Assembly (NCBI GenBank): GCA_009760855.2
Contig: WPIO01000009.1
Coordinates: 4,681,001-4,745,000, forward strand
Direction of reading: 5' to 3'
Length of the DNA: 64,000 nt
Source: Cristatella mucedo
Taxonomy: Eukaryota > Bryozoa > Phylactolaemata > Cristatellidae
Made by a program: the position numbers and the translations under genes. The notes below the pieces were generated by a model. The model was given only the letters and a program-made list of their open reading frames with translations. It was not told the DNA's origin and ran no database searches. Shown here piece after piece: positions 35,183 through 55,672 of this stretch (its first letter is position 1; each line of letters starts with the position of its first letter).

Positions 35183-38100
35183 CTAATTCCAGACTAAGAG
35201 GAGCCTCGCCGCCGCCACAACGACTAGTGGACGCCGAAAGCACTTAGCGACGGCCTGCGGGGGGGGGGGGGAGGTGGCGGTCGAGCGCGGACGAACGAGG
35301 CCGCCGCGCCCCGCCTACCTTTCGAATCGTCTCCGCCACGCGGAAACGCATGTCGGCCACTATCGATTCGGGCAGGCTGCTTGCGAGCTGAGCGTTTTTC
35401 ACGTACAGATCGGCAACCTGTTGGAACAAAGAAAGTCGGAGCGTCACGAAAGCCAGGACCGGCTTTCGCCGCCGGGCGGCGGCCATGCACGCTCGGCCCT
35501 TCCGCCTGCCGGGCGCCGTCGGCCGCCCTCGGCTGGCGCGCCTCGTGGCATTTACGATGGCACAGCCGCAGCTTTTCGGCCGCGCCTGCCACTCACCATG
35601 AGCATAATCAAGCCCGACTTGTCCTTGGCAGTCGAATTTTTCGGGTAGGGGCCGAGGCAAATGCTCGATATGGGCACGCCCTCGCCAAGGTGCACGGCCT
35701 TGAGGAATGTCCTAAGCGAGATTGAGAGTTTCACTACATTCCGTTACATTGGCGTCACAGCAGCCGGATCGAGCAGCAGCGCGTCTCTCGGACGTTTCAG
35801 CCGTGCGAACTCTCGCGCTCGAGCAAGCTCACCCCAGCGTTTCCGAGAGCTTCTGCTGGTTCTCCGGGCTTCCGGTGGTGGTCACCACGTGGCAGCACCC
35901 GCGCCGAATGTCAGCAATCTGCAAGCGGGGCAAATGCGATAGCGCTAAGCAATAGCTTCGAGTCTACTGTTAACAGTCCAAGGAGTGAAGGGACGCTGCG
36001 CGGCGCTTCGACGTACGACCCGACTATCTGCTCGGGTGATGAGATGGCCCGGCGTAGCTGCCCTGAACAAACGATTGCAGTCCACAGCGGACGACATTTT
36101 AAGATTGCAGCCGTGAAGGCAGCGGAAGGCTTCGCAAGTTGTCAACTGCTGCGGCTGCGGCACTCTGACAGATCGCGATGGATCGCGCCAGCGGTTGAAG
36201 TGGGCGCCAGATACAATAGAGAGCGATTCGTACGCGTTCCGTACGGATGTATCTGGAATGAAGGCAGCCAGTGGCTATCGAGAGGCATCCCACCTGCCAA
36301 GATTCGCCAGGATCCGTACTTCTCGCGTCACCCTTTTCTGTTTGAAATTTTGAGAGCGCTTAGCCAGACTAAATAGGACGTTTTCTTCAATGCGCACGAG
36401 TGTCCAGAAATCGCTAGACGAGCGCTCGCTCCATCGCCGCGCTCGGGCACTCTAAAGCAGGACAGCCGGCGGCCGACGGCACGTGGCGTCAGTTCGTTGA
36501 CCACAGCACGTGGCGCAGCGATTCTGTTGTTCTGTCGTCGCGTCTCTTTTCGGCTGCTAATGGACGAGAGCCTACGCCTAGACTCGTTGTGCTAGAAGTT
36601 GTACGAGAAGTTCGGGTGCTTGGATGCACTAGGAAACTATAAAGCTCGCCGCCTTCGTTTTAAAGTCTTTGGCACTGTGCATAAAAAGAAGCTAGTTCGT
36701 AGTGAACAAACTTGGGAAAGGCAAAGTGGCTGTGCAGCCTTGACCCATACATGCATTTTCAACCAAGTACCTCGCTTTTCTCACGCTCCTCTGCACTCGC
36801 ATCCGGTGTGTAGGCCGTGCAAGGAGTACTTTGCTGAATTTGTATGACCGCTCAGCTTGAACGCGCCACACGCTTCAACAGCGACCCAGAGCGAACGAGG
36901 CTGCCTGACAACAGTCCGTAGGTAAAGATGGACGAAATCAGATTCTTATCGAAGGATACGTTTCTGTCATTGACTTCGCAAGCGCCGCTTCAATCGAAAC
37001 TTGCTAAAGCGCATGCAGGCCGAGGTGGCATTCGATTCGCTCAAATTCTATTTGCTCTAGCGAAAGACGAGTAGCGGAAGTGAGCGTCGATGTCGGCAAC
37101 CGGGCCAACCGAAAAGCAGCGTCTGTTGCCTGCAGTCAGGAATAATAATACAAATTAATTATATACTTGATAAAGCGCCCCCAGAGAACTCGATTTCTTT
37201 CTGGGCGCTTTACATTTGCTGCAAAGGAGGAAGCGAAAAGGTAAAGCTAAAAGTTAAAAGCTAAAGCTCTGTTTTGCCATTCGAAGACCCGAGGACACCC
37301 GAGGTGGCTCGCACCGATGAGTCGGCTCGTCAGCGGCGTCGTCGGCGAGTCACAGCCGCGAAACCGCAAGCGTGTGCGTGCGAGCATCGGCTGCCGGCGG
37401 CGAACGAAGTCAAACGGGCCAGCCAGCCCAGGTCAGCAAGGTAGCGCCTGCGTCCCGAGCTCGGCTGCTAGCAGATGTCGAAGCATGCAGAGCCAAGCTA
37501 CGCAGCAGGCCGTCACGGACGATCCAACGACGTGCGCCGGTCAGCGAGCACAAAGACTCATTCCGACGAGGCCCTCGTGTGGGTTCGCGACCCACCCCCA
37601 CGCTGCTGCTAGACCGGGCAGCGAGCGACCAACAGGCGGCGACCCTCGAAAGACGGAATGCGCGGGGCTCGCTGTAGGGAAATGAGCCGCTCGACGGCCG
37701 ATTGCAACTTCCTATAGTGCAGGCGCCATTAGCGAAGCCGAGCCTTCGGCTTGGAGAGTCGGCTACAGGAGCTGGCGGCGGCGGCGGCGCTGCTCGCGGC
37801 GCCACCTGGCGTGGGTTACCAGCAGCGAGAAGAAGCCGCTGGTGCCCATGACGGGCATCAGTGTGGCGGCCTTGGACACAGTGCTCGCGATGTCGTCCCT
37901 TTTCATGGCGCGATATCCGGTCTCATAGCCCGGTGGATAGTTTAGGCGGTCTTCGAAGTTCCTTCCCGGCGGCACCTTCAGCTCGTGCAGAACGTCGGGC
38001 GTGGGCACCGATCTGGCCGCCTTGTCAATCTGCAAAGAGAGCGGCGCCACGAGCGGGTCTTCGTGAGCGCTTCGAAGCGACCGAAAGCTTCCCACGTCGC

Positions 38101-55672: not shown

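What the first reader, a model, noticed from the sequence alone, without database searches (positions are those of the whole stretch)
35183..55672. Single gene model joining a pseudokinase, three Ulp1/C48-like modules and a C2H2 finger
Twenty-four exons splice into one open frame of about 1,143 codons with matching phase at every join. The parts are normally in separate proteins: a protein kinase fold and SUMO-protease folds. I know of no described protein with this architecture. A composite of catalytically decayed kinase and deSUMOylase folds could act as a scaffold, a decoy for pathogen effectors that target these enzymes, or a SUMO/ubiquitin reader.
Basis: partly seen in the sequence, partly recalled or inferred. 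Interest (0 to 1): 0.88.

Follow-up and report, generated by a model that had tools for sequence, protein, structure and literature searches.

The report
Dead kinase fused to SUMO-protease-like repeats
A gene of an invertebrate animal appears to join one broken protein kinase to a row of three broken, SUMO-protease-like units; if transcripts confirm it, the protein is an unusual non-enzymatic scaffold built from two kinds of dead enzyme.

Summary
Exons 1-4 encode a degenerate protein kinase (Pfam Pkinase 1.2e-26; HRD is HRN, DFG is DVR, no glycine loop). Exons 5-25 are three consecutive seven-exon units with the same intron-phase plan (1-0-0-0-2-0-0). Their C48/SENP origin rests on a joint profile that beats 300 of 300 column shuffles against C48, two introns at the same residue and phase as in this genome's own intact-looking SENP1-like gene, and a co-linear active-site map. 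Pfam finds no C48, PDB searches with subsets of the units gave other, insignificant hits, and unit 3 is weak by sequence. In all three units the catalytic Cys aligns with Ser and the His with Tyr, Arg or Phe. No second copy was found for the pieces searched. Most likely it encodes a non-catalytic scaffold. No transcripts or orthologues were available, so one gene versus two, and a partly decayed 3' half, stay open.

The parts
55223..55672 (-). Exon 1: start codon, N-terminal part and kinase N-lobe (VLVK lysine kept, glycine loop absent)
54695..54846 (-). Exon 2: kinase, ends inside HRN (SH-R)
   Evidence: junction agrees with the CHK2 alignment
54245..54476 (-). Exon 3: kinase catalytic loop N-MKTENVLL, DVR, PPE
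52796..53236 (-). Exon 4: end of kinase C-lobe plus about 93 residues of unknown nature
   Evidence: AlphaFold2 on this exon alone uninformative
52494..52620 (-). Exon 5: unit 1 slot Z
51328..51449 (-). Exon 6: unit 1 slot A
51185..51220 (-). Exon 7: unit 1 slot B (VIDAAFEAMNNT); intron before it at the SENP1 position
50563..50721 (-). Exon 8: unit 1 slot C (LLPYNVVGNYWILM; catalytic His position is Tyr)
50246..50334 (-). Exon 9: unit 1 slot D (Asp position kept)
48830..48959 (-). Exon 10: unit 1 slot E, QENSDESGVV (Cys position is Ser)
   Evidence: fails the codon-frame test
48295..48402 (-). Exon 11: unit 1 slot F
47634..47814 (-). Exon 12: unit 2 slot Z with C2H2/BED-like finger
45504..45607 (-). 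Exon 13: unit 2 slot A
43546..43587 (-). Exon 14: unit 2 slot B (VIDTMLMILTKEHN)
42766..42930 (-). Exon 15: unit 2 slot C (FLPYEMSKGRWILV; His position is Arg)
40910..41001 (-). Exon 16: unit 2 slot D (Asp position kept)
40643..40823 (-). Exon 17: unit 2 slot E, DRNVKNSGIL (Cys position is Ser)
   Evidence: fails the codon-frame test
39419..39613 (-). Exon 18: unit 2 slot F; 5' boundary uncertain (39613 in phase, 39530 out of phase)
   Evidence: fails the codon-frame test
38923..39040 (-). Exon 19: unit 3 slot Z
38528..38649 (-). Exon 20: unit 3 slot A
38140..38178 (-). Exon 21: unit 3 slot B (IVDAYLHIICSKA)
37820..38029 (-). Exon 22: unit 3 slot C (LMPVMGTSGFFSLL; His position is Phe)
35833..35918 (-). 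Exon 23: unit 3 slot D (Asp position is Thr)
35597..35711 (-). Exon 24: unit 3 slot E, STAKDKSGLIM (Cys position is Ser)
35319..35417 (-). Exon 25: unit 3 slot F (MRFRVAETIRK, like the SENP C-terminal helix by eye)
35183..35254 (-). Exon 26: proposed last exon with TAG; weak
   Evidence: open frame only; not the best frame

Best explanation
One animal gene encodes a protein of about 1,290 residues made of an N-terminal pseudokinase and three tandem units that descend from a SENP1-like (peptidase C48) gene, multiplied by internal duplication and catalytically dead. I think it works as a non-enzymatic scaffold: each dead domain offers a protein-binding surface and the array brings partners together, in the way described for other pseudokinases and pseudo-DUBs. 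Shown here: an open, phase-consistent exon chain, the phase repeat, the kinase similarity and its broken motifs, the homology of units 1 and 2. Supported but not proven: C48 origin, membership of unit 3, a single transcript. Inferred: loss of activity and the scaffold role.
For: 26-exon frame with all phases matching. Kinase: the spliced model gives Pkinase 1.2e-26 against 4.1e-20 for draft pieces, and the three kinase joins fall inside the CHK2 alignment and restore its motifs. Units 1-2: BLASTP 1e-7; local score z 10.6, 0 of 1,000 shuffles. Joint profile vs C48: hhalign score 31.7 over 154 columns, maximum of 300 column shuffles 24.7, reversed 10.7, kinase 12.7; each pair of units also beats 100 of 100 shuffles. 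Joint profile vs PDB: 10 of 10 listed sequences are Ulp1/SENP1/SENP2, best E 0.11; reversed profile 0 hits. The own SENP1-like gene (PDB SENP1 at 2e-47) has an intron three residues after HW in phase 0, and an exon that begins at VIN in phase 0 (the exon upstream was not located), the same places as C/D and A/B in 3 of 3 units. What I read as a SENP6/7-like gene has neither. Catalytic positions by alignment: His to Y/R/F, Cys to S/S/S.
Against: Pfam finds no C48 in any of 3 units at E up to 10. PDB search with units 1+2 alone lists TCP-1 theta (9 of 10) and a nitrile hydratase, best E 0.13; unit 1 alone csaA (E 1.2); unit 2 alone UL31 (E 0.037); so the 10-of-10 result is suggestive only. Against C48, 36 of 100 shuffles reach unit 1 alone, 0 of 100 unit 2, 1 of 100 unit 3, which moreover aligns out of register. 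Unit 3 vs units 1 and 2: 32 and 325 of 1,000 shuffles reach the local score and 452 and 584 the global score; units 1-2 global 3 of 1,000. Exons 10, 17, 18 and 26 fail the codon-frame test. No AATAAA/ATTAAA lies between 35183 and 33196 on this strand, while such sites lie in introns 15 and 19. No transcript and no orthologue was available.
Confidence: 0.58

Rival explanations
1. Two or more adjacent genes: a pseudokinase gene (exons 1-4, perhaps 5-11) and a separate gene beginning in exon 12, whose finger exon contains a well-placed ATG.
For: Exon 12 has AACATGG ahead of the finger; exon 5 also begins with ATG; every unit starts and ends in phase 0, so phase cannot prove these joins.
Against: Exons 4 and 11 have no stop before high-scoring donors (12.4 and 13.0 bits; next acceptors 11.4 and 9.5; the score matrix was trained on these same sites) and the introns there are short (175 and 480 bases). 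No AATAAA/ATTAAA on this strand between 56000 and 42087; by my own estimate only about three would be expected, so this is weak.
Confidence: 0.22
2. A decaying gene or pseudogene: the 5' kinase part is still constrained, the 3' half is drifting.
For: Codon scores fall from 0.64-0.80 in exons 1-4 (the training set) to below zero in exons 6, 10, 11, 16-20 and 26; the exon 18 boundary is awkward; no clear 3' end.
Against: The 26 exons can be chained without a stop or frameshift (true by construction of the model); exons 21-25 score above zero in frame.
Confidence: 0.15
3. The units trap or read SUMO or another ubiquitin-like protein, as an engineered Cys-to-Ser Ulp1 does.
For: Cys aligns with Ser in 3 of 3 units; Ulp1 C580S interacts robustly with SUMO (PMC3216068, passages); the Trp after the catalytic His is kept in units 1 and 2.
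Against: [quoted passage not shown] A natural Cys-to-Ser OTU protein showed no significant ubiquitin-chain binding (PMC4654579, passages).
Confidence: 0.15
4. The units are not C48 at all but another alpha/beta fold that duplicated in this gene.
For: No Pfam C48 match; subset profiles rank other proteins first at similar E-values.
Against: Shuffle test, co-linear active-site map, introns at the SENP1 positions in 3 of 3 units.
Confidence: 0.15
5. The C48-like part came from a transposon or virus that carries a Ulp1-like protease.
For: Such elements exist (recalled).
Against: Intron positions shared with the host SENP1-like gene; no copies found for the pieces searched in the genome; in viral contigs 25 stretches matched a pattern and none was a relative (one scan, two short patterns).
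Confidence: 0.04

Closest known systems
SENP1/SENP2/Ulp1 (peptidase C48 SUMO proteases), incl. the own-genome SENP1-like gene on contig C111
   Same: Order of elements (VIN helix, LPxxxxHW strand, D-strand, Q-N-xx-DCG box, C-terminal Arg helix); two intron positions at the same residue and phase
   Different: Three copies in one protein; His and Cys replaced in all; the other two introns of the SENP1-like gene lie elsewhere; no Pfam-level similarity
Pseudokinases with HRN (PSKH2; HER3 and the JAK2 pseudokinase domain are named with it in PMC7586955, passages)
   Same: Catalytic Asp replaced by Asn, kinase fold kept
   Different: Also lacks the glycine loop and has DVR; fused to C48-like units
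Otu/CG3251 and OTUD4 relatives with Cys-to-Ser (PMC4654579, passages)
   Same: Natural Cys-to-Ser in a ubiquitin-protease fold, gene duplications or triplications, non-catalytic function proposed
   Different: OTU family, not C48; separate genes; no kinase
Pseudo-DUBs (PMC10919355, 12 of 26 passages shown)
   Same: Dead protease folds used as allosteric activators or scaffold components
   Different: The passages shown name no C48/SENP pseudo-member

Membership tests
Protein kinase superfamily | Kinase fold by sequence | tested here: met
   Pkinase 1.2e-26, residues 97-331
Active protein kinase | HRD catalytic Asp | tested here: not met
   HRN at residues 200-202
Active protein kinase | DFG and glycine loop | tested here: not met
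   DVR at 220-222; no Gly in the stretch VSDCFINA, which the Pfam match does not cover
Active protein kinase | beta-3 Lys | tested here: met
   VLVK, K108
Peptidase C48 (SENP/Ulp1) | Pfam PF02902 match | tested here: not met
   0 of 3 units at E up to 10
Peptidase C48 (SENP/Ulp1) | Profile similarity to C48 beyond chance | tested here: met
   Joint profile exceeds 300 of 300 shuffles; alone, unit 2 exceeds 100 of 100, unit 1 only 64 of 100, unit 3 99 of 100 but out of register. C48 was the named hypothesis; other families were not run through the same test
Peptidase C48 (SENP/Ulp1) | His-Asp-Cys triad and oxyanion Gln | tested here: not met
   Y-D-S with Q; R-D-S with D; F-T-S with S (slot E of units 2 and 3 registered by hand on the SG pair)
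Peptidase C48 (SENP/Ulp1) | C48 three-dimensional fold | not testable with these tools
BED/C2H2 zinc finger | Cys2His2 spacing and family score | tested here: inconclusive
   C-x2-C-x12-H-x4-H; zf-BED 18.0 bits, cut-off 20.6
SUMO-binding (Ulp1-type trap) | D451-equivalent Asp | tested here: not met
   R, A, A in units 1-3, counted back from slot B; position named in PMC3216068

The most novel reading that the evidence does not exclude
A protein in which a dead kinase and an array of three dead SENP1-derived domains were fused into one dedicated scaffold linking kinase and SUMO/ubiquitin-like signalling: a natural SENP pseudo-protease array, a kind I did not find described.
Probability: 0.42. 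Interest if true: 0.8.

Novelty: new variant of a known kind. Interest (0 to 1): 0.58.

Why it matters
Pseudokinases and pseudo-DUBs are each well known, but I saw no natural array of dead SENP domains and no kinase-SENP fusion in the listings of my literature searches (open-access library only, several lists capped). If real, it gives a testable case of two enzyme folds losing activity and being kept together, with an intact-looking SENP1-like gene still present in the same genome.

Tried and rejected
A fourth unit elsewhere in the window: outside the gene's own exons the unit profile finds nothing better than E 0.78. Extra exon at 40518-40441 (first-draft exon 17): dropped because no convincing phase-consistent join to exon 18 was found. 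L022 as a relative: E 0.6, AT-rich sequence. AlphaFold2 of exon 4: useless. Viral relatives: none. NCBIfam for the kinase: weak matches to bacterial families, all far below their cut-offs. Rfam: nothing in the window. tRNAs: none. The 10-of-10 Ulp1/SENP result I first took as strong; one search showed that near-identical TCP-1 chains can fill the list in the same way at similar E-values, so I downgraded it. Which animal: COX1 conserved positions read best with AGR = Ser, ATA = Met, AAA = Lys, judged from memory of COX1; no further identification.

Full report
Setting. The window lies on contig C687 of an unnamed 572 Mb genome. It is an animal: a SENP1-like gene elsewhere in it matches PDB SENP1 at 2e-47, and its COX1 reads best under an invertebrate-type mitochondrial code (conserved positions judged from memory).

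Gene model. I read the minus strand, listed exons with their splice sites and completed the model: 26 exons, 3,867 bases, start ATG 55672, stop TAG ending at 35183, all phases matching. The codon score of the annotated frame (trained on exons 1-4 only) is the best of six in 21 of 22 other exons with a stop penalty and in 18 of 22 without it; random open AG..GT intervals in the introns reach that in 1,328 of 6,696 cases. Exons 10, 17, 18 and 26 are the weak ones.

Kinase. Pfam Pkinase 1.2e-26 over residues 97-331; the nearest solved structures are CHK2 and other kinases, best E about 3e-13. The three splice joins fall inside the CHK2 alignment and restore its motifs. HRD is HRN, DFG is DVR, the expected glycine loop has no glycine, the beta-3 Lys is kept. 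HRN usually abolishes catalysis (PMC7586955, passages). A pseudokinase is therefore likely; residual activity is not excluded by sequence.

Repeat units. Exons 5-11, 12-18 and 19-25 form three units of seven exons with out-phases 1-0-0-0-2-0-0. Slot B is a tiny exon of 36, 42 and 39 bases. Units 1 and 2 are homologous (BLASTP 1e-7; 0 of 1,000 shuffles reach the local score, 3 of 1,000 the global). Unit 3 is weak: 32 and 325 of 1,000 shuffles reach its local score with units 1 and 2, and 452 and 584 its global score. In leave-one-out tests with 999 shuffles each, all three units rank first, with E 0.00045, 1.6e-6 and 0.063 (the alignment had been made with all three, a mild bias).

C48 origin. 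For: the three-unit profile aligns over 154 columns with C48 at score 31.7; 0 of 300 shuffles reach it, maximum 24.7; each pair of units beats 100 of 100 shuffles. Against the PDB it lists 10 sequences, all Ulp1/SENP1/SENP2, best E 0.11; its reverse lists none. In the own SENP1-like gene an exon begins at VINFYMN and an intron follows three residues after HW, both phase 0 (the Pfam match also begins there; the exon upstream was not located); all three units have introns at those places. What I read as a SENP6/7-like gene of the same genome runs through the first place and seems to be interrupted before HW instead (the gene name and the joining of its two pieces are my reading). Against: no Pfam C48 match; PDB lists for units 1+2, unit 1 and unit 2 are led by TCP-1 theta, csaA and UL31, so list composition at E 0.1-1 proves little; alone, unit 1 is reached by 36 of 100 shuffles, unit 2 by 0, unit 3 by 1 but out of register. 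No other protein family was run through the shuffle test. I hold C48 origin at about 0.85 for units 1-2 and 0.7 for unit 3 (judgement).

Active site. Reading the SENP positions H, D, Q, C: unit 1 Y, D, Q, S; unit 2 R, D, D, S; unit 3 F, T, S, S (Q and C of units 2 and 3 registered by hand on the SG pair). Proteolysis is unlikely. A serine could in principle act, but the natural Cys-to-Ser OTU proteins tested were inactive, and that paper says serine DUBs had not been described (PMC4654579, passages). Ulp1 C580S traps SUMO and needs D451 (PMC3216068, passages); the matching residues here are R, A, A, so a SUMO trap of the known kind is disfavoured.

Copy number. Apart from the gene itself, the kinase search gave 7 matches with E 0.15 or worse, one unit search a single match at E 0.6, the other none. 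Slot A of unit 1, slot D of unit 2, slots B and D of unit 3 and exon 26 were in no query, the query was a draft, and exon-wise searches miss diverged copies; so single copy is likely, not proven. No relatives in viral contigs.

Function. The best-supported reading is a non-catalytic multi-domain scaffold. Partners are unknown; the effector-decoy idea is untested.

Novelty. Six literature searches (listings, of which 45, 74 and 75 showed only the top of longer lists) showed no kinase-C48 fusion and no array of dead SENP domains; the library is open-access only. PMC4759884 (passages) lists Pkinase and Peptidase_C48 as separate integrated domains of plant immune receptors, a different setting.

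Noticed in passing
4185-5270 and 258-818, minus strand: Neighbouring coding stretches with Folate_rec (3.1e-5, under its cut-off) and GSDH (0.0065, under; 3.6e-6, over) similarity, resembling hedgehog-interacting-protein-like genes (name recalled).
   Followed up: partly
7728-8045 (-), 30277-30597 (+), about 53896-54053 (+): A dispersed repeat whose translations share '[19 protein letters not shown]'; one copy lies in intron 3 of the gene.
   Followed up: no
about 46355-46280, 41455-41380, 37215-37140 (minus strand): Similar short stretches around 'gcgcccagaaagagattgagttctct..gggcgctttatcaa' followed by TTA-rich runs, seen also in L001; SINE-like by eye.
   Followed up: no
14474-15091, plus strand: Open frame that looks like the end of a LINE reverse transcriptase (motif recalled; no Pfam match at 0.01).
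   Followed up: partly
G000:C166, C83, C549, C299: COX1-like stretches outside contig C688; TGA is expected in a mitochondrial code, but those on C83 and C299 also hold TAA or TAG, so nuclear mitochondrial copies are likely.
   Followed up: no
49834-50144, 51578-51811, 53663-53802: Long CT/GA microsatellites inside introns of the gene.
   Followed up: no
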